Below, piece by piece: positions 18,715 to 30,537 of a DNA stretch of 64,000 nt. The notes beneath the pieces are model-generated. The model was given only the letters and a program-made list of their open reading frames with translations, had not been told where the DNA came from and made no database searches. Source of the stretch: Massariosphaeria phaeospora (Eukaryota > Ascomycota > Dothideomycetes > Pleosporales); contig JAADJZ010000017.1 of assembly GCA_011032825.1 (NCBI GenBank), positions 372,001-436,000 of the forward strand, read 5' to 3'. The translations under genes were made by a program, and so were the position numbers. Position 1 is the first letter of the stretch. Each line of letters begins with the position of its first letter.

Positions 18715-19363
18715 ATGGCACCGCCAAAAGTAACATACGGCGCAGAAAAGCCCAGGAGGACAAAGAAGAAGAAGCCTCGAACCCAAGGCACGTAGTCGCC
18801 AGGAAACGCAGATATCAACCCTGTGCTGACACACAACTCAAGTCTGGTCATCGGATAGCGAAAGCGAGGTTGAACAGCGAAAAGCCAAAAAAGCAGCTGC
18901 AGCAAGAGCAGAAGACGTAAGCTTAAACCTTTTGACATGTGAGCTCATGTACATGTGTACTGATCAAGGTCAGACTCAACACGATGTGACACCCGCGCAG
19001 GCCTCGCCCCCGCGCAAAAAGCCCAAGAAAAGCTCCAAGAAATCAAAGTCTTCCGAGCCTGCACCGCTCCCAGAAACTGATGGCGACATCTCCATGGCCG
19101 ATGACCAGCCAGCATCTTCCGCCTCTCCAGCACCGGTCCCAGCGCCAACAGGCCCGAAAGTGGAAACTCAACGCCCAGAAGAGGATTTCGGGTCTGTTTA
19201 CCTGCGCAAAATTACGGCCGAGCTTGCGGATGATCTCGACAAAGTAAGGGAGGCGCAGGATTTTCGCAACGATAGTTTGCCGCTCTTGATTCATGCGTTG
19301 AAGCAGGGGCACAGTATGTTCTCTATGGAGGAGAAAAAGCGGGTTACGGGGTCGGTTCATTGA
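18715..19363 (+). CDS. RSA3: ribosome assembly protein 3 (RSA3)
   Basis: Three exons: 18715-18787, 18843-18916 and 18974-19363; 178 residues. The start MAPPKVTYGAEKPRRTKKKK and a long Lys/Ser/Pro/Ala-rich linker lead to the conserved C-terminal block, where FGSVYLRKITAELADDLDKV and LPLLIHALKQG match the Rsa3 family. Yeast Rsa3 is a nucleolar factor for early 60S subunit assembly. The first intron appears to be of the GC-AG type (CAAG^GCACGT..CTCAAG): using it gives a continuous frame, whereas the GT two bases further on does not. The second acceptor is GGTCAG at 18971-18973. The 3' end converges with the SKI3 5'-half region. Confidence 0.8.
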
Positions 19364-19771: not shown

Positions 19772-20686
19772 TCAGTAAGCCTCCACGTCTAGCCCAGACC
19801 TCCACTCCAACTCGATCTGCCAGGCGAGTAGGAACGGATGCTGGATGATGACCATGTCATGCGCCAACTTCATAACCTTGTCCCTCTTCTCCAGTTTTTT
19901 CCCAGCCGGAAGCACCAGCAAGTTATCATAGGCCCTCTGCAAGAGTTTCTCTTCGTAGATTCTCCGCAAATCGTCGTCCGTGGTCCAGTCGATGATATTC
20001 TGGTATACGTCCTCCAATTCGCTTGTGCTGTAAACTTCTTGCTTCACTTGGATGGTGGTGCCCTCAGTTGTAGCGCCGATCCGCGTTTTCCGCTCGGCTA
20101 TCTGCTTGCTGATTGTCTGGGCCTCCTCTGCTTCGTGTATCTCGGCGATTCGCGTGTAAATGGCATCTGGCTTGGGCAATCGCCCTTCGAGAAAGGAGTA
20201 AATTGGCGAAGTAGGGAGCTGGGTTGCGAGTGCGCGGACGTATTGTGACTTGGTGCCATGTTTGCGGCCGTGATCAACGAGCTTGTCTATCGCGGATTGT
20301 GATTTGTGGGCGTCGTCGCTGCATGATGAATTAGAAAGGAGAGAAGGTGGCTTGGGAATGCCAGCTCACGCTTCCGCGTATAGTTGCGCCAGCTTCAGTC
20401 CGACCTGGGTATTTTCATCGACCTTGGCTGGGCCTTGTTTCTCATAAAGACCCCGCAACCCGAGCCACGCCTGCGTGTCGTCCGGCTTGATCTTCGTCGC
20501 GCCATTGTACGCGTTTGCGGCGTCTTCGAATTTGCCCAGCCCGTCGTTCGCTCGGCCCAAGAATAGTTTGGAGAAGTAGTTCTGCGGGTCCTTTTCGAGC
20601 ACCGCGTTTGACTGCTCGATCGCTTCCTCCCACCTTTTTCCGTCAATCGCGGCTTTGACAGCCTTCAGGGCGGCTTTGGTAGCCAT
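19772..20686 (-). pseudogene. SKI3: SKI3 (superkiller 3) N-terminal half, separated from the rest
   Basis: Two exons, 20686-20370 and 20318-19772, with a 51-bp GTGAGC..CAG intron in phase 2; 287 residues ending in TGA. It starts MATKAALKAVKAAIDG and has two N-terminal TPR units (WEEAIEQSNAVLEKDPQNYF, then FEDAANAYNGATKIKPDD). It continues to HPFLLAWQIELEWRSGLDVEAY, matching the Ski3 region just before the next helical repeat. The frame then stops abruptly where Ski3 should run on for about 1,100 residues. The missing part lies on the opposite strand from 23193. Ski3 is the TPR scaffold of the cytoplasmic Ski2-Ski3-Ski8 complex, which feeds mRNA to the exosome. It has its own apparent promoter (20687-20840). 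The half may be transcribed but cannot alone be Ski3. Confidence 0.85.
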
Positions 20687-20840
20687 GTTGGTGAATATAG
20701 ATAGGCTGATGAAGAGTGTGCGCCGGCAACGCGCGGCAAATTATGTGCGCGCCATAAAATAACGTGTAGAGGAGCAGCAGGGGCGAGCGACAAAGTGGAA
20801 AAGGTGTGGATGATGAAAGGTTCCCCGCTAGCGCCAACCT
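20687..20840 (-). promoter_or_regulatory. promoter/5' leader of SKI3 N-terminal half
   Basis: Only 154 bp separate the start codon from the transposon end. The stretch contains TTATTTTAT at about 20755-20763 (minus-strand sense) and a CT-rich leader. The transposon has pushed any farther upstream elements 2.1 kb away. Confidence 0.4.
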
Positions 20841-20841
20841 A

Positions 20842-20890
20842 CAGTGCCCGTGCGCGCGATGAGCCAGTACAACCGATGAGCCACCCCAAC
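20842..20890 (+). repeat. left terminal inverted repeat of Fot1-like element
   Basis: 49 bp, identical to the reverse complement of 22931-22979; carries a tandem pair of the CGATGAGCCA motif. Confidence 0.95.
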
Positions 20891-20994
20891 TAAAATTAGC
20901 ACCCGCAAAAACGAGGCTGTAGAGCCACATATTAGTTCAACTATTATAAGATTTTCTAGTGTAGTACTATATAGAGGCTTGCGCATCTTTTGCA

Positions 20995-22880
20995 CTATTT
21001 GAATTTTTGTGGTACCTTGATTTGGCGGCCCCGCGTGGTGGTTTTGGGTGGAGGCTGCGGCAGCAGAGATGCAGCATCAACACCACTTGCAGCACCCACA
21101 ACACGACGCTTCTTTGTAGATTTTGCTACAGTGCTAGGTAAAGCTGCTCGCTTGCTTTTTTTTAGTGTATCGCGAGATTTTTGTAAGGTTGCAGCGTCGC
21201 GTTGCTGCTTTTTGAGCGCGCGCGCGGCAGCTAGCTCTGCAGCCTTCGCTTTCTGCTCCTCATTGCGCCGCTCCTTTGTAATTTGTCGCAGCGCTTTTGC
21301 TTCTTCTACTATCTTTGTTTTATATAGTGTAGCAGCAGCTTTAAGCTCTCTTGCCTGAGTTTTCTGGAGTTTTTGCTGCTCTTCTTCGCGCTGTTTGACT
21401 GTCTCGCGCACTCGAGCTTCTCGGATCTTGCGAGGACTCTATAGTACAGCGCTGCTATGGTACTCCTCGCGCTGCTGCAGGTTAAGGACTTTACTCTTCT
21501 TCTTATGCTTTCGTTTCGTAGTGAGTACCGCGCGGAGGCTATTGTTTTTGTAGTAGAGTAGCTCGTTTTGAACCTGTAGAGAGTGTAATGTACTAGCAAA
21601 GCGTTTAGCTTTACCTTTCGTCTTATCTGCAACTGCAGTGTCTAGAATTTTTCGTATATCATTCTAACTATCTTCATTACCAAGCTTCTGCAGTTCTGTA
21701 TCCTTATCTTGATCTAAAGTGGTAGTGTTGAAGCGTTTGAGTATAACCTCTGCATCTATCGGCTACACGCCCGTAGCTTCAAAACTCTTCTGTATAGTCT
21801 CTCTCCTCATTGTAGTGCCCCACGCTGACCAAAATATTGGAAAAAAGTCGCCTTTCTTGACGCCAACAAGCCCTTGCGATTGGTGTAGGTAGCAGTTGAG
21901 TTCTTGCGAGTAGTAGTTCGAAAGAGGAGAGAACAACACCACATCAAGCAGCTGTAAAGTGTGAGTTGAATAAGGAAAAAAAACAGCTAGTAGGATCTTA
22001 TTAGCGTCGCAAAAGTCTATAAACTCGCGCGTAAAGTAGCTGCCGTAGCTGTTAACGAGAAAGAAGCGCCATTGCCGGCGCGCTTTTTGCTTTGTGTAGC
22101 GCTCAAACAGCTGCTCAAGCTAGGCTAATCCGATATCGTTGTTCGTCCATCCTAAGGTTGAGTTCGCTATAAATACTTGGTGTTTTCCAGCTTCAACGTT
22201 GTCAACCTAGCTTGATTGCAAGCCAGCTTTTCCCTCGTAGATAAAAGCGGGCGGCAGCGCCTCACCATCAGCGCAAACACAAGCCAAAAGCGTGATCCAT
22301 TCTCTATTGCCATCTTGTATAGCCGCTGTACGCAATTTTGCCTGCCAAACTGCTTTAGAAAAGACGCGTTTTGAGCGTGTAGTAATGCCGACAAAGAAGC
22401 TTTTTCATCTATATTATAGGTATTGCGCGCCTCAACGCCGTACTCATGCATTTTCCTGTGCAGCAGTTGAAAGTATAGGTCGTATTTCTCATGTGAGTCA
22501 GCTTGGTGACGATTGCGATCAATCCTAGCGCTCTATTTAGTGGTAAGCTCGTCGGCGTGGCGATGCAGAAAGCGCGAAACCTACGCATGCGAAGCCTCGT
22601 GTTTCGCAACTGCGCTAGCAAAATTTCGTACTATCTCTCTTGTAGGTGGCAAGCTTCGCTCTGTGCATCTTTCTATGTACTGCACAAGCTCTGCCTCTTG
22701 TTGTAGGTTAAGTAATTGCTGTTCTTCTAATGCGGCTGCATGGGACTGCGTTCTGCCTTTGTGCCTTCGCGACAGTGTTGTGCGATCAACACTAAACTGT
22801 TTTGCAACTTCGCGATACGAGAAAGATGCGCCAGCTTCACCTGATTCGATTGCTTCAATCGCAGCCTCGATTGAGTTCAT
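20995..22880 (-). pseudogene. Fot1-like transposase with TAG codons at Trp positions and one frameshift
   Basis: Starts at 22880 (MNSIEAAIEAIESGEAG). The helix-turn-helix has FSYREVAKQFSVDRTTLSRR, and one frame runs to a Lys/Ala/Glu-rich coiled C-terminus ending KVPQKFK at 20995, about 630 codons. It is interrupted by about seven in-frame TAG codons (first at 22581), mostly where relatives have Trp (for example QSS-stop-VDN, GLA-stop-LEQ, TGV-stop-PIDAEV). There is one apparent single-base deletion in an A run (complement of 22401-22405) after NIDEK. The first catalytic block reads VNSYGSY instead of LDGHGSY, so the catalytic Asp is Asn. It is inactive as read by the standard code; see findings. 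Confidence 0.85.
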
Positions 22881-22930
22881 ATTGGTGGAGTTGTGACGCG
22901 TTAAGGTTGGGACGAAATACATGTTTTGAT

Positions 22931-22979
22931 GTTGGGGTGGCTCATCGGTTGTACTGGCTCATCGCGCGCACGGGCACTG
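22931..22979 (-). repeat. right terminal inverted repeat of Fot1-like element
   Basis: 49 bp, identical to the reverse complement of the left repeat. It lies about 170 bp upstream of the start codon of the SKI3 C-terminal half. Confidence 0.95.
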
Positions 22980-22981
22980 TA

Positions 22982-23150
22982 ATCTCAGCCCTACGAGAGG
23001 CCCGCACTCCCCCATGTTCCTGCTTGCCTACCTGCTACGTTTGCACTGCTTCACCACCATCCTGTCCTCCAACACACAACCCTCTCTTTGTTGTTCATTT
23101 CTGCAGCGCCACAACTCTTCTTTCCGGCGACGGTCCTTGCCTCGGCCACA
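22982..23150 (+). promoter_or_regulatory. short promoter/leader driving the SKI3 C-terminal part
   Basis: 169 bp between the transposon end and the ATG. It is pyrimidine- and CA-rich (CCACCATCCTGTCCTCCAAC), typical of a fungal 5' leader. It probably belonged to another gene before the rearrangement. Confidence 0.4.
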
Positions 23151-26100
23151 ATGGCGTCTCAGGCAGACAGCGCGCACGACTTGTTGGACCTCGATATCCA
23201 AACTCTACGCCAATTCCTTGAGCTCTTTCCGCAGCAAGGCCTATCAAAAGTCCTGACAGGGTACCTGAGTAGCGGGATATCCAGACATCCGCTCGCTGAG
23301 AATAGAGAAACACCAGATCTGAGTGAGGGCGGGGTAGCTCTGCATCAAAATGTCCCGCTTTCGCAAGAAGACTGTCTGATCTTGATGACCGAAGGGATAT
23401 TGGAAGCTAGAGACTCTCCACTCGCTCATTGCTTGCTTGGCGACTACTACTTATCATTGGAAGAATACGAGAGTGCTGTCGAGGCAACCCGAAAGGGCTT
23501 GAAGCTTGCTGTAGCCGAGGCGAAGAAGACGGACCTATCCTTTATCAGGTATGATTAGTTCAAAAATGTGAACGAACGAAACCCTAATGTCTGAAGAACA
23601 CGGGATGCGCTGAGTAGCACACTGGCCACTGCTTTAGTGTACTACCAAGCACCTAGGAACCATTCAGAGGCTAAAGAAATCTTCCGATCTATACTCAAAC
23701 GTAAACCCAAGTTCACCGCAGCACTAATAGGTATCGGAATCATTCTATCGGAAGAAGAGGAGTACTCCGAAGCCGTTCAGTTTCTTGAAGAGGCCCTGAA
23801 ACAGGATCCTGCCAATGGTAGGATCGGCGCCGAGGTAGCCTGGTGTCAGGCCTTAAGTGGCGACTACAAGACCGGATTGGCAAGGCTTCAGGACTACCTA
23901 GACTACCCCCAGTTGGATGCATCTAAGCCGCGTGGCAGAGAACTCCGAGCCCAGACCCTGTACCGTATTGGAGTTTGCATTTGGGAACTCGACTCATCCA
24001 GAGCCGCCCGGAAAAATCGCCAGGGCGCTTATGCAAAGTTTCTTGCTGCTATCAAAGCAAACCCGAATTATGCACCGGCGTATACGAAACTTGGCATATT
24101 CTATGAAGACTACAACAAAGACCGAAAACGAGCAAGACAATGTTTCCAGAAAGCATTCGAACTCTCTCCATCAGAGACCGTAGCTGCCGAGCGTCTCGCG
24201 CGGATATTCGCCAATCAGGGTGAGTGGGATATCGTGGAAGTGGTCTCGCAACGAGTAGTCGACTCTGGAAAGGTCCGTCCAGCTCCTGGGTCAAAGAAGA
24301 AAGGCGTAAGCTGGCCGTTTTCGGCACTAGGCGTAGTTCAGATGAACAAGCAAGAGTACCAAAAGAGCATTGTCTCGTTCCTGTCGGCACTACGTATCAG
24401 TCCAGGCGACTACCACGCGTATGTCGGCTTGGGCGAAAGCTACCACAATTCCGGACGCTACAACTCTGCCGCACGGGCTTTCAACTATGCGGAGAACCCT
24501 ACGGACGGAGCGGTCATGAAGAACGCTGATGGCGAACGCTGGTTTACAAAGTATATGCTAGCAAACGTGAACCGAGAACTCGGGGAATTCGACGAAGCTA
24601 TCGTAGGCTATGAGCAAGTCCTGAGCGATAGGCCTAATGAGTTTGGTGTTTCGCTTGCGCTACTACAGACGCTGGTAGAGAAAGGCTGGCGATGCATTGA
24701 GACCGGATTCTTTGGCGAGGCGTCCGATAGCGCCGTTCGAGCCATAGAAGTTGCAGCTACTATTGCGGAGTACAAGCCAGACGCTTTCAACCTGTGGAAG
24801 GCGGTTGGCGACGCATGCGCCTTGTTCAGCTGGGTGCAGGAAAAGCTGGCTAAGTTTCCCGCGAAGGCTGTCGAAGAACTCCTCCGATATGAATCCGGTA
24901 TCGAACTCGACTACAACACACACAACGATATAGACGGGGTGGGCGCGGATGACTTGGCTTTGATAAGCTCGGGCGATTCTGATAAAGCGCCTTCCACCCT
25001 GACTAGAGTGCTTAAAGCTTCAATACTAGCCCAGAAGCGGGCAATCGCCAGCTGTGCACACGATATACATGCCCAGGCTGTTTCCTGGTACAACCTAGGC
25101 TGGACCGAGTTCCGCGCGCACGTCTGTTTGGAACAAGAAGGACAAGAAGGAGGGAAATTGACCACATATCTCCGAGCGTCCATGAAGTGCTTCAAACGCG
25201 CCATCGAGTTGGAAGCAGGAAACTCCGAGTTCTGGAACTCACTTGGTGTTATCACGACAACATTGAACCCGAAAGTGGCTCAACATGCCCTTGTACGATC
25301 TCTTCATCTGAATGAGCGCAGCGTGCTAGCATGGACGAACCTAGGCACGCTTTACTTGCTACAAAATGATCAGGAGCTTGCACACATGGCTTTCTCTCGT
25401 GCTCAATCTACCGATCCCGACTACGCACTGGCTTGGATCGGGGAAGGTATCGTCGCGCTTCTTTTCGGCGATTCCAACGAAGCGTTATCGCATTTTACAC
25501 ACGCTTTTGAACTCTCGGACTCTTCGTCTCTACTCACCAAACGTCAGTACGCGGTTTCGACATTCGATTATCTGGTCTCGTCACCTTCGGCATCGAACAA
25601 CATCACCCATCTTATCCAGCCCCTTTTCGCCCTTCACCAGCTCGGCTTCCAAACCCCGTACGACATGCCTCACAAACATCTTGCAGCGCTCTTCCTCGAG
25701 CGAGTGGGAAACCATGACGCGGCTATCAGTGCCTTAAGCGCCATTTGCGAGACCACAGAACAAGAATACGAGACCTCCGAGTCGGACTCCGCTCTCGCAA
25801 AATACGCCCAGGCAAAAACAGACCTGGCCCGCAACCTCCTAGCGACAGGATCGTACGAATCCGCCGTCAACGAAGCTGAAACCGCTCTCGACCTCCTCTC
25901 CGACTTCGACAACACCGCCGGCCAAGCGACCCTATCTGCCGAAGCTCTTTCCAAAACCCGTCTCTCAGCGCGCCTCACCGCCGGCCTCGCCCACTATTTC
26001 GCCGGCGACCTCGAACCCAGCCTCCCCTACTTCCGCACCTCTCTCGAAGCCAGCGGGTCCAACCCCGACATCATCTGCCTGCTCGCCGAAGTGCTCTGGG

Positions 26101-26636
26101 CCAAAGGCGGCGCCAACGAGAAAGACATCGCGCGCGAGCAACTCCTCGCCGCGGTCGAGAAATGGGGCACCAAGCACGTCGGCGTCGTGACGCTGCTCGC
26201 CGCCATGGCCCTCCTCGACGACGACGCCGACACCATGGACGCCGTGAAGCCCGACCTCGCCGCCCTGCGCACCGACGCTTCGCTCTCGGCCGCCCAGCTC
26301 GCGCGCGTCGAGACGGTCATTGAGGCCATTGCGATGTGGCTGGGCGGCGAGGCAGAGGAGTTGGATGAGGCGCGGCGCGCGGTCGTGCTGGCGCCGTGGA
26401 AACATACGGGTTGGGCTGCGCTGGCGGGTGTTGCGGGCGGCGATGATGCGTTTGCCGCGACGATGGCGAGGGAGACGGCAGGCAGGAGTGTGCCGCCGGG
26501 CGGAGCGCTGGATGCGGTGGCGTTGGCGGGCGCGTTGGCGGGGACGGGCGAGGTGAGGGATGCGCAGAGGGGGGTTGTGCTTGCGCCGTGGTGTGGGGAG
26601 GCGTGGGCCGCGTTGGCGGAGTGTGTGGCCGGTTGA
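23151..26636 (+). CDS. SKI3: SKI3 (superkiller 3) C-terminal part, TPR protein, fused to a foreign 5' end
   Basis: Two exons, 23151-23548 and 23597-26636, with a 48-bp GTATGA..AAG intron in phase 2; 1,145 residues. From DIQTLRQFLELFPQQGLSKV (codon at 23193) onward it follows Ski3 to its C-terminus, with many TPR units (for example YAPAYTKLGIFYED and YHAYVGLGESYHNSGRY). It ends in the family's characteristic RGVVLAPWCGEAWAAL segment. The first 14 residues, MASQADSAHDLLDL, do not look like Ski3. They are preceded by a CT-rich leader and a CACAATGG start context, as if from another gene. With the 287-residue N-terminal half on the opposite strand the two parts total about the length of yeast Ski3 (1,432). 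The protein lacks the N-terminal TPR region. Confidence 0.85.
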
Positions 26637-27156: not shown

Positions 27157-29949
27157 CTATATTTTCTCCTCTAGCAGCACCGTCATACCCGTAATCAGCG
27201 TCTTGCCCCCCTCAACCTGCTCCCGAATCCTTACCTCCCTCTCCCTATTCCTCTGCACCGCAACCTTCTGCACGGCACCCAACTCCTCAAGCCGCTTGCC
27301 GACACCATCACTCTCTGCCCCTAGCAGCACATCAAACTCCTTCTTCACCGCCTCTGCAAGCTGGTCCTCGAGCGCCTTCAGCGCCTTCACTTTCAGGCGC
27401 TCGACATCCCGCTCAAACTGCGCTTCCGCCTCCCCGCGCGCCTTCTTCGTCGCCTCCTCGCGCTCCGCCGCGCCCGCTTCATCGGCCTTGCGCTTCTGGG
27501 CGCGGAGCGCGTCGCGTTTCGCGCGGGCCGCGAGATAGCGGGCGGAGTGGCCGAGCGCGCGGCCGTGGCCGTCTTTGGTGGCGAGGCGCGCGGCGTTGAG
27601 GGGCGGGGCCGTGAAGAAGAGCACGCGGCCCTGGTCGTCGCGCTGGAATTGCGCTCGGATGGCCGGCGGGATGGACGCGTTGGCGTGGTCGCTCAGCGTG
27701 TAGACTTCGACGGGGCGGGGCGCTTGGTAGGCGACCGGGGCGGGGTGCAGGTGCGGTTGCGGGTAGGAGGGCGCGGGCCGGGGCGTGACGTATTGCTGCA
27801 TGGGGGCGGGGGGTTGGGGCGTGGAGAAGGGGAGGTGTGGCGTGATGGCTTGGTAGCTGCCTGGGGGTGGGGGAATCGCTGCATGAGAGACGTGCGGAGC
27901 GGGAGATTGGGAGTGAGAGTGATAGCGCGATGCGTGCGTTGGGGTGTAGGCAGCCTGTACGTGGTGAGGTTGGGGCGTGGGCAAGGGCATTGGCGAGGCG
28001 GGAGGGGCTTGCGCGATAGGATAATTCCTCTGCGAGTCGCCGCCGTAGCCGTTTGTCGGGGGTGGAGGCAGCGAAGGAGTAGCCATTACAGGCGCCGGTG
28101 GTGGTTGGGGTGGAGGAGACGGTGTTGGTTCGGGTGGTGGTGAGTCCTAAAGTAAGTGAGCGTGTGCCTCTCCGTATCAAAGTGAGACTTCAATCTTACC
28201 TTCGGGTCGCGAGGACGGCGGTGAACCGCGCCAATCTTGGGAGGAGCGTTTTCCGCACCCCATTCAGGCTTAGGAGTATCGTCGTCCTCTTTTTGTTCGT
28301 CCTTGAGCAGGTACGCGATCGGACTGGGATTCTTCTTGAGTTTCCGGGTCGCGTCGAACAGGTCCATCACGTAGTCCTTATCCCGAACTTCATCCGGCAA
28401 GCAGCTTGCCCACGTTTTGATCTTGTTGAGTTTGTGCTTCTCCTCATTGTATCGCGCTTCACAGACATAGATTTCCTTGTCTGCCGGAAAATCGCGAGGG
28501 CGGCCCTTGTTGTATCTGGTAACAAACATAACAAAACAGCGGTCCACTACCTCGTCGATACGATGATCACGATACTGACCGGTCTTAACAACTTCATTCT
28601 CCAGGAAATGACGATCCCACCGATGGACCGTCTGCTCTGGTCGGTAATACCAGCAGGCGTTCACCCATTTCCCGCCTTCGATGTCTTGCCAGGTGCGATA
28701 TATCTGCGCGACAATAGGCTTGGTCAGGTCATTCGCATTCTGGATGTGAACCCAATCGCCAACTTTCCAAAGCTCTCCGTTGTGCAAAATGCCATTAGGC
28801 ATGGGGATGCGGCCCTCTTCCATGGCGTATTCGTTGTCTGGCTTATCTTTCTCTTCTTTTGCCAGTCTTCGGCCCTCCTTTTGTAGGTGGACGGCATCTT
28901 TGTACACCTGGCTGTCGTCCTCGTTGTATTTCTTGGCATTTTCAAACATCAGTTCCACGTCCACCATGAACTGGTCGACGGAATTGTACTTCTTCCGCTT
29001 GAGCTTCCGCTTCAGAGTATCCATGGCCATAGGAGTCTTAATCTCGGCATGGTATTCTGGCATGACCGTCTTGTCGGGAATGCGCTCGAAGGCACTAATC
29101 ATGAGCTTGTTTAGCTGATTTCTAGGCTTCCTGATGCCTTTCATGATGGCTTTGATGCGGGCTTCCATGGGAGTATCGACACGTGGGGGCCGTCCGCGCC
29201 TCTTTCTGGCCTCTGGGTCTTCGTTCTTGGCATCCTCTTTCGATCTGCCGCCGCCGCCGCCTCCTTCGCGTTTGGTGATTGCTGCTGTGGAGCGTGGACC
29301 GCGTCTTCGCTTCCGCTTCCCATCCTCATCGCTACCTTCGTCCTCTTCCTCGTCCTCTTCGTCGTCATCTTCTTCCTCCTCCTCCTCTTCTTCTTCAGGT
29401 AGCAATGGGTCTTGTTCTGGGATCTCTCCTAGATATGGTAGGCTTGCGGCTTCCTCGGTGATGGTCTTGGCATCCACGAGTTTCTTGAGTTCTTGCTGGA
29501 GTGCCTTTTTGACTTCTAGCGCATCGACGTATGCCTGCGAGTCCTGTCTGTTGTAGACCTGCGCGTTGTGAGGCACCAGGGCGAAGTCGCGCACGAATTC
29601 GGCAAAGACCTTGTACTCTTTCTGCGCCACTTTAGTCTTGATCATGCTCAGGGCCATGGGTTCCTTGATGACGTCGTAGTAGTCGGGCAGCGACCGCTTG
29701 TTGACCTTGCGCTGGAAGAGTTTCGTGGGGTCGTAGCCACTATCATGCACTGTCAGCCATTGCGGATTGCATCGCGCATGCGGGGCGCAACACGTACTCG
29801 TCGGATCTGTAGGAATAAACGTTCTGCAGCACCGTTGCCATGGCCTTCCACTCGTCGTCGGTGACGGTGGACGATGCGCCATTGGTTGCAGGGTCGGCCG
29901 TCTCGGTGGTCGGCACAGGCGTGGAGCTCGGGGCGCGTCCGGAGGCCAT
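27157..29949 (-). CDS. RSC1: RSC chromatin-remodelling complex subunit, RSC1/RSC2-like (two bromodomains and BAH)
   Basis: Three exons: 29949-29798, 29739-28200 and 28146-27157; 893 residues from MASGRAPSSTPVPTTETADP. Bromodomain 1 (about residues 30-135) has LPDYYDVIKEPM and the PHNAQVYN loop. A run of Glu/Asp about 30 long and an RRGRPPR AT-hook-like patch follow. Bromodomain 2 (about 245-345) has MPEYHAEIKTPM and FENAKKYNEDDSQ. The BAH domain (about 370-500) includes LWKVGDWVHIQNAND and ACWYYRPEQTVHRWDRHF. The last exon encodes a Pro/Gln-rich tail and a charged coiled coil. Yeast Rsc1 and Rsc2 (928 and 889 residues) have the same order and bind acetylated nucleosomes in the nucleus. It is divergent from OTU1. 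Confidence 0.9.
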
Positions 29950-30537
29950 GCTGATGTACCGCGCGCTGTTGAACGAGTGTTATACAATGCGCTCCTCAGC
30001 ACGGCGGGTGTGGCTGATGCAGATGCGCGTGGGAAGGGGACAGGCGCACCGGTGAACGACGTGGTGTGCTGCTATGTACAGTCGCCGTGCTCGGGCGGCC
30101 CCTGCGCTCGGCGAAATAGTTCTGCCGGATCTGCGCAGGGATTGGGCATGGGTGGCGCTTTCCGGCCTCGGCTTCCGCGGTTCCGGAAGCTTCACCAATG
30201 CTATATTGTTAGATTCTTCCTACGACATTATATGTTCCCACAACACCATTGTCGCTGAACCAACACGCTTCACTCTTCGCGTAGAACGCCCTCGTATCTC
30301 TCTTTTCAAACATACTTCCACTCCACACTTCACACAGTCTTGGAAGTCGATACCATATCTAGTCTTCTCCCGCAGTTCCGACCACTCGTCGTATAAATAC
30401 GCAAGTGTGCTTCCGAGCATCATACCCACACTCAACACTGTATCCCATACTCTGAAGTCCCTACACGCTCCACTGGATCTGCGATATACCGGCGCCGCAC
30501 TTCTCTAGGTTCCGCTACTTTTCATCAACCGCGCAGC
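29950..30537. promoter_or_regulatory. divergent promoter region between RSC subunit and OTU1
   Basis: 588 bp between start codons facing apart. The half next to OTU1 is C/T- and A-rich, with GTATAAATA at about 30390 as a possible TATA box on the plus strand. Confidence 0.45.

What the first reader, a model, noticed from the sequence alone, without database searches (positions are those of the whole stretch)
19772..26636. SKI3 split into two oppositely oriented halves by an apparent 3.4-kb inversion
Seen: the N-terminal 287 residues of a Ski3-like TPR protein are on the minus strand (20686 to 19772), ending abruptly at ..GLDVEAY-stop. The remaining 1,100 or so residues start at DIQTLRQF (codon 23193) on the plus strand. 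Together they equal a full-length Ski3 with no gap or overlap. Inference: inverting 19,775-23,192 would place GAG GCT TAC directly before GAT ATC CAA in frame and recreate one plus-strand gene. The Ski complex scaffold would thus be broken in this strain, or made as two separate polypeptides from two promoters.
Basis: partly seen in the sequence, partly recalled or inferred. Interest (0 to 1): 0.88.

Follow-up and report, generated by a model that had tools for sequence, protein, structure and literature searches.

The report
Ancient two-gene Ski3 in Pleosporales fungi
A large scaffold protein of the cell's RNA-destruction machinery, made from one gene in many other fungi, is encoded in this fungus and its relatives by two separate, well-conserved genes, and a jumping gene has since landed between them here.

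Summary
The proteins match Massariosphaeria phaeospora (Pleosporales). This is not a strain-specific breakage: 39 named taxa have both parts listed as separate proteins, no Pleosporales name appears among the 120 listed fused proteins, and both trees need one change between split and fused. The nearest fused relatives (about 1,400 aa) are Botryosphaeriales. In distance-matched comparisons the N part diverges at most slightly faster than in fused fungi, and no intact second copy was found. The cut lies in a loop that I count as between TPR 7 and 8 of the N-terminal arm, which is flexible in human SKI3. The C part keeps the TPR 8 hairpin; I infer that the N part docks there in trans. The 3.4-kb 'inversion interval' holds a 2,142-bp decayed pogo/Fot1-like transposon in the divergent promoter, so it is not one event. 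An ancient in-place inversion remains the most economical origin; orientation in relatives could not be read. The paper searches made listed no report of the split.

The parts
19772..20318 (-). SKI3-N gene, exon 2, with stop codon
   Evidence: spliced translation; 100% to P0121; PF18833 TPR_22 at residues 141-228
20370..20686 (-). SKI3-N gene, exon 1, ATG at 20686
   Evidence: TPR families within residues 7-85
20687..20839 (.). SKI3-N side of the divergent intergenic region, now cut by the transposon (324 bp between the two ATGs without it)
20840..22981 (-). 2,142-bp decayed pogo/Fot1-like DNA transposon (transposase on minus strand), TA at both ends
   Evidence: 51-bp perfect inverted repeats; repeated in the genome, nearest full-length copies 96%; HTH_Tnp_Tc5 over cut-off; TA flanks, 19-38 stops in each minus-strand frame
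20840..20890 (+). left terminal inverted repeat
22931..22981 (-). right terminal inverted repeat
22982..23150 (.). SKI3-C side of the divergent intergenic region / 5' leader
23151..23548 (+). SKI3-C gene, exon 1: own ATG, conserved new N-terminus MAS..SAHDLLDL, then the TPR 8 hairpin (my count)
23597..26636 (+). SKI3-C gene, exon 2, to stop
   Evidence: single strong match in the genome

Best explanation
SKI3 underwent one ancient gene fission in the ancestor of Pleosporomycetidae (Pleosporales; Gloniales and Mytilinidiales by their N parts). The cut fell in a loop of the N-terminal arm that I count as lying between TPR 7 and TPR 8. The products are an N-arm protein, mostly 287 aa, and a C-arm protein of about 1,140 aa that starts with a new short N-terminus and keeps the TPR 8 hairpin. 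Inferred: the N-arm protein docks on that hairpin in trans, so the Ski complex gains a separate N-arm subunit while the C arm holds Ski2 and Ski8 as usual. Inferred: the origin was an in-place inversion of promoter plus N-terminal coding part, which would give a head-to-head pair sharing one promoter. Shown here: a 2.1-kb transposon lies in that promoter in this genome; that it came after the split is inferred from the age of the split.
For: 118 of 120 listed N hits end at the same motif; of 77 complete C starts 72 begin MAS and 75 hold SAHD; 0 of 120 listed fused hits hold AHDL in residues 271-300. No Pleosporales name among the 120 listed fused hits. One change on the N tree (42 split, 30 fused rows, support 83) and on the C tree (39 and 30 rows, support 100). 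N/C distance ratio close to that of fused fungi at matched distance; cut edges as conserved as in fused groups of like diversity. N part folds alone, mean pLDDT 90.6; best match is Ski3 2-298. In a fused relative the cut falls in the loop between helices 270-278 and 290-299. In human SKI3 the TPR 1-8 arm is flexible, and TPRs 9-40 with SKI2N and SKI8 form the gatekeeping module (PMC8860381, passages).
Against: No binding or expression data, and no orientation data from relatives; docking in trans is inferred. The N part may evolve somewhat faster after the split: median N/C ratios 1.094 v 1.057 and 1.045 v 0.999 in matched bins, 1.155 v 1.093 in a bin with one fused pair, and 1.083 v 0.957 over all pairs unmatched. 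For Glonium, Lophium and Lepidopterella only the N part was seen. TPR numbers are my count of AlphaFold helices (fused model pTM 0.50), matched to the human paper by count alone. N-tree support for the split clade (83) is moderate. Zopfia is listed as Dothideomycetes incertae sedis.
Confidence: 0.78

Rival explanations
1. One reading: a recent 3.4-kb inversion broke SKI3 in this strain, leaving the Ski scaffold non-functional or patched.
For: Opposite strands and near-perfect tiling.
Against: Same two proteins with the same ends across Pleosporales, single change on both trees, constraint kept; interval holds a transposon.
Confidence: 0.02
2. Assembly or annotation artefact.
For: A repeated element between the parts could confuse an assembler.
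Against: Same ends of both proteins in many separately deposited proteomes; own start and stop codons here.
Confidence: 0.01
3. After fission the N-arm protein left the Ski complex and took an independent role (or the arm is dispensable and merely lingers).
For: The arm is flexible and unmodelled in human SKI; slight excess of N divergence.
Against: N part nearly as constrained as in fused fungi; TPR 8 hairpin of the C part, part of the same arm by my count, is not relaxed (0.771 v 0.724 and 0.660); the genes stay linked.
Confidence: 0.15
4. The two-gene state arose by duplication of SKI3 and complementary loss, or by fission without inversion and later local rearrangement, not by one inversion.
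For: Orientation and synteny in relatives were not readable; Dothideomycete gene order and orientation are shuffled within chromosomes (PMC3219968, abstract and passages).
Against: No left-over second copy found here; parts are adjacent and head-to-head, as one small inversion would leave them.
Confidence: 0.3

Closest known systems
Ski3 / TTC37 (SKI3), scaffold of the Ski2-Ski3-Ski8 complex
   Same: Both parts together cover most of yeast Ski3; N part folds like yeast Ski3 2-298; TPR families; single copy.
   Different: Two polypeptides from two divergent genes instead of one; new N-terminus on the C part and short new tail on the N part.
Gene fission of conserved proteins, e.g. mitochondrial cox2 split into complementary genes (PMC5374615, search listing only) and an inventory of 1,680 fusion and fission events in 12 fungi (PMC2557144, abstract)
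   Same: One ancestral gene became two complementary genes.
   Different: Here a nuclear-encoded RNA-decay scaffold, cut inside a repeat solenoid, shared by a fungal clade of about subclass rank, with the genes head to head in the one genome read.
pogo/Fot1-type transposons of Tc1/mariner (the element between the genes; family features recalled)
   Same: Inverted ends, TA duplication, Tc5/psq-type DNA-binding domain, about 2 kb.
   Different: Decayed copy; no DDE domain recognised in the pieces tested.

Membership tests
Ski3/TTC37 | sequence homology along the Ski3 length | tested here: met
   N part to yeast 5-296, E 2.8e-23; C part mainly to yeast 403-1327, E 1.9e-98
Ski3/TTC37 | TPR solenoid fold of the N-terminal arm | tested here: met
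Ski3/TTC37 | single polypeptide of about 1,400 aa | tested here: not met
   287 aa + 1145 aa on opposite strands
Ski3/TTC37 | only copy in the genome | tested here: met
   C-part exon 2; second match weak, E 7e-4, 25% identity; N-part exon 2: one match
Ski3/TTC37 | binds Ski2 and Ski8 | not testable with these tools
   a SKI2-type gene is present (PF17911, one match); binding not testable; SKI8 not searched
pogo/Fot1 transposon | terminal inverted repeats and TA target duplication | tested here: met
   51 bp, 100%; of 12 loci looked at, both ends were found by exact match in 6 (L003 = this copy, L004, L005, L008, L010, L011) and all 6 have TA on both sides
pogo/Fot1 transposon | Psq/Tc5-type DNA-binding domain | tested here: met
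   HTH_Tnp_Tc5 24.8 bits over cut-off 22.2; HTH_psq 19.2, below its 20.4
pogo/Fot1 transposon | DDE catalytic domain | tested here: inconclusive
   three ORF pieces searched apart, no DDE match; copy has many stops

The most novel reading that the evidence does not exclude
In a whole fungal subclass the SKI3 N-terminal arm is a separable subunit: Ski complexes with and without the arm coexist, and its supply from a divergent promoter tunes exosome delivery or ribosome engagement. The promoter-splitting transposon in this species is then a natural experiment on uncoupling the two subunits.
Probability: 0.2. Interest if true: 0.8.

Novelty: new variant of a known kind. Interest (0 to 1): 0.6.

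Why it matters
SKI3 is the scaffold of a conserved RNA-decay complex, and deficiency of human SKI3 (TTC37) causes trichohepatoenteric syndrome (PMC8860381, passages). The role of its flexible N-terminal arm is hard to test in fused proteins. A clade in which evolution has cut most of the arm off as its own gene offers a ready-made test: remove or titrate the arm alone. If the split is confirmed across Pleosporomycetidae it is also a rare shared character for placing lineages, and a warning that an annotated 'Ski3' of about 1,140 aa there lacks the arm.

Tried and rejected
Rejected: strain-specific inversion, misassembly (see rivals).

Rejected own lead: one search suggested that the new C-terminal end of the N part is unusually conserved after the split (98th percentile of N windows, against 50th in fused fungi). 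With fused groups of similar diversity (33 Eurotiomycete rows; 26 rows taken as Capnodiales-like, 17 of them without an organism name and placed by me) the effect vanished: last 25 residues 0.855 in split, 0.858 and 0.854 in fused; the last-40 window ranks 399 and 879 of 1,339, the first C window 599 and 569. Only 'not relaxed' is kept.

Led nowhere: scans of viral contigs (49 pattern matches, none confirmed) and genome contigs (none confirmed) for N-part loci, hoping for a stray fungal contig that would show orientation. Upstream extensions of P0034 and P0070 were read by eye for antisense N-part sequence: none recognised. Papers: searches (superkiller + Dothideomycetes: 0 papers; the others list 10-20 of 21-1,122 papers) showed no title or abstract start that reports a split Ski3; papers not listed were not seen, and most subscription papers are not held. 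Two papers on the yeast Ski complex that I recalled are not held.

Not tested: orientation and spacing of the pair in relatives, synteny in fused relatives, expression, SKI8.
Full report
WHAT IS THERE. The minus strand from 20686 to 19772 encodes a 287-aa protein in two exons; the plus strand from 23151 to 26636 encodes a 1145-aa protein in two exons. Both proteins are public models of Massariosphaeria phaeospora at 100% identity (P0001; P0121), so the window comes from that species (Pleosporales, Pleosporomycetidae) or a very near one. Residues 4-283 of the N part align to yeast Ski3 5-296 (E 2.8e-23). The C part aligns from yeast 403 on (E 1.9e-98), with a 0.3-bit stretch at 296-336 that continues directly from the N part. 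No other intact copy was found: C-part exon 2 has one strong and one weak match in the 42-Mb genome, and N-part exon 2 has one match.

WHAT LIES BETWEEN. Positions 20840-22981 are a transposon of 2,142 bp: 51-bp perfect inverted ends and TA at both ends. The genome search gave 83 matching rows, the nearest full-length copies 96% identical (rows include part matches and end repeats, and only 40 of 294 candidates were scored, so this is no copy count). Of 12 loci looked at, this one included, both ends were found by exact match in 6, all with TA on both sides. One ORF piece carries HTH_Tnp_Tc5 over its cut-off and HTH_psq just below its own. The three minus-strand frames hold 38, 28 and 19 stops. 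Without the element the two ATGs are 324 bp apart. The '3.4-kb inversion interval' is thus a small divergent promoter with one N-terminal coding part and an insertion.

THE SPLIT IS SHARED. Search with the C part allowed candidates up to about 2,000 aa, yet the 120 listed hits (of 1,595) run from 995 to 1243 aa. Of these, 77 begin with Met and hold the first hairpin within 60 residues under my pattern; 72 of 77 begin MAS and 75 of 77 hold SAHD in the first 20 residues. The other 43: P0079 fits by eye but misses the pattern, P0034 and P0070 are extended upstream, and 40 (none with an ncbi source) start inside the protein. Search with the N part listed 120 hits (of 158; candidates of about 160-500 aa only); 118 of 120 hold a WR-type motif within 25 residues of the C-terminus; some are N-truncated metagenome models. 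I paired by name 39 taxa in which both parts were listed, so that both exist there is by choice; some others with both parts listed were left unpaired (Boeremia exigua, Bipolaris maydis, Paraconiothyrium brasiliense, Paraphaeosphaeria minitans, Alternaria burnsii), and many names appear in one capped list only. In the 39 the N parts are 281-301 aa (31 of 39 exactly 287) and the C parts 1138-1148 aa. Locus tags are consecutive in the five pairs whose tags look serial: Plenodomus lingam (IAQ61_010083/84), P. biglobosus (J1614_002212/13), Alternaria incomplexa (J4E90_000539/38), A. rosae (J4E91_001475/76), A. dauci (ACET3X_001052/53). Tags of the DRAFT type, such as this species' own 498859 and 596662, do not adjoin; I recall that such numbers are not serial. 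N parts were also seen in Glonium stellatum (Gloniales), Lophium mytilinum (Mytilinidiales) and Lepidopterella palustris (Mytilinidiales), all Pleosporomycetidae; their C parts were not among the listed hits.

FUSED RELATIVES. A query in which the N part alone was scored, but candidate length set by both parts together, found 292 proteins, 120 listed, 118 of them 1,300 aa or longer. The best are Phyllosticta and Macrophomina (Botryosphaeriales), then other Dothideomycetes and Aspergillus. On a tree of the N region (42 split and 30 fused rows that I chose) the split needs one change, support 83; on a tree of the C region (39 and 30 rows) one change, support 100 (SH-aLRT, quick method). Next to the split clade in the N tree stand Botryosphaeriales and Eremomyces. 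One origin is the simplest reading. Zopfia, split, is filed as Dothideomycetes incertae sedis but falls inside the split clade.

BOTH PARTS ARE KEPT. The median ratio of N-region to C-region distance (minus log identity) is 1.094 in split and 1.057 in fused pairs at C distance 0.25-0.35 (371 and 26 pairs), 1.045 against 0.999 at 0.35-0.45 (205 and 33 pairs), and 1.155 against 1.093 at 0.15-0.25 (145 pairs and 1 pair). Unmatched, over all 741 split and 435 fused pairs, it is 1.083 against 0.957. The pairs are not independent; a small acceleration of the N part is possible, wholesale relaxation is not seen. The cut edges are as conserved as in fused groups of like diversity; an earlier sign of extra conservation was an effect of a broader comparison set and is withdrawn.

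HOW IT MOST LIKELY WORKS. Inferred: the N-arm protein docks by its last repeat on the TPR 8 hairpin that the C-arm protein retained, restoring the arm in trans. The hairpin would have little reason to stay conserved (0.771 over 30 positions, against 0.724 and 0.660 in fused groups) if nothing docked there; that is an argument, not a proof. The C arm, which in human SKI makes the contacts to SKI2 and SKI8 described in the passages read, stays in one polypeptide, so the core complex should form. A SKI2-type gene is present (PF17911). Origin, inferred: a small inversion of promoter plus N-terminal coding part; Dothideomycetes are known for shuffled gene order and orientation within chromosomes, for which frequent inversions are the proposed cause (PMC3219968, abstract and passages). 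Orientation in relatives was not readable, so duplication with complementary loss remains open.

NOVELTY. Gene fission is a known kind of event (PMC2557144, abstract; PMC5374615, search listing). A clade-wide two-gene Ski3 was not found in the listings of the paper searches made, which cover open-licence papers only. Some databases label both parts 'Superkiller protein 3' (Kalmusia: P0003, and P0129), so the pieces are known, but no statement of the split was found.

Noticed in passing
window 20840-22981; L003-L014: Pogo/Fot1-like transposon family whose 51-bp ends contain a near-repeat (17-bp units at 22931 and 22948, 82%); full-length rows range from 96% to about 76% identity, some side by side (C50:976479-978594 and 978592-980733). 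TpA/ApT is 1.30 against 0.76 for the window, but (CpA+TpG)/(ApC+GpT) is 1.20 against 1.16, so RIP is at most hinted.
   Followed up: partly
window 18932-19363: RSA3-like ribosome-assembly gene (PF14615) on the plus strand, convergent with SKI3-N; a useful synteny marker for the left flank.
   Followed up: partly
window 28086-30002: Bromodomain + BAH protein (RSC1/2-like by recalled domain make-up) on the minus strand right of SKI3-C; synteny marker for the right flank.
   Followed up: partly
window 23151-23192 and relatives in P0001-P0120: The new N-terminus of the C part (MAS..SAHDLLDL) is nearly invariant among the listed C parts (SAHD in 75 of 77 complete starts) although fused Ski3 lacks it; a possible docking or capping motif with no explanation yet.
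   Followed up: partly
window 19772-19795 and N parts in P0121-P0240: The tail after the WR-type motif is 2-4 residues in Glonium, Lophium, Lepidopterella, Zopfia, Delitschia and Lindgomyces and 8 in 92 of the 118 hits measured, often ending VEAY: the new C-terminus seems to have grown after the split.
   Followed up: partly
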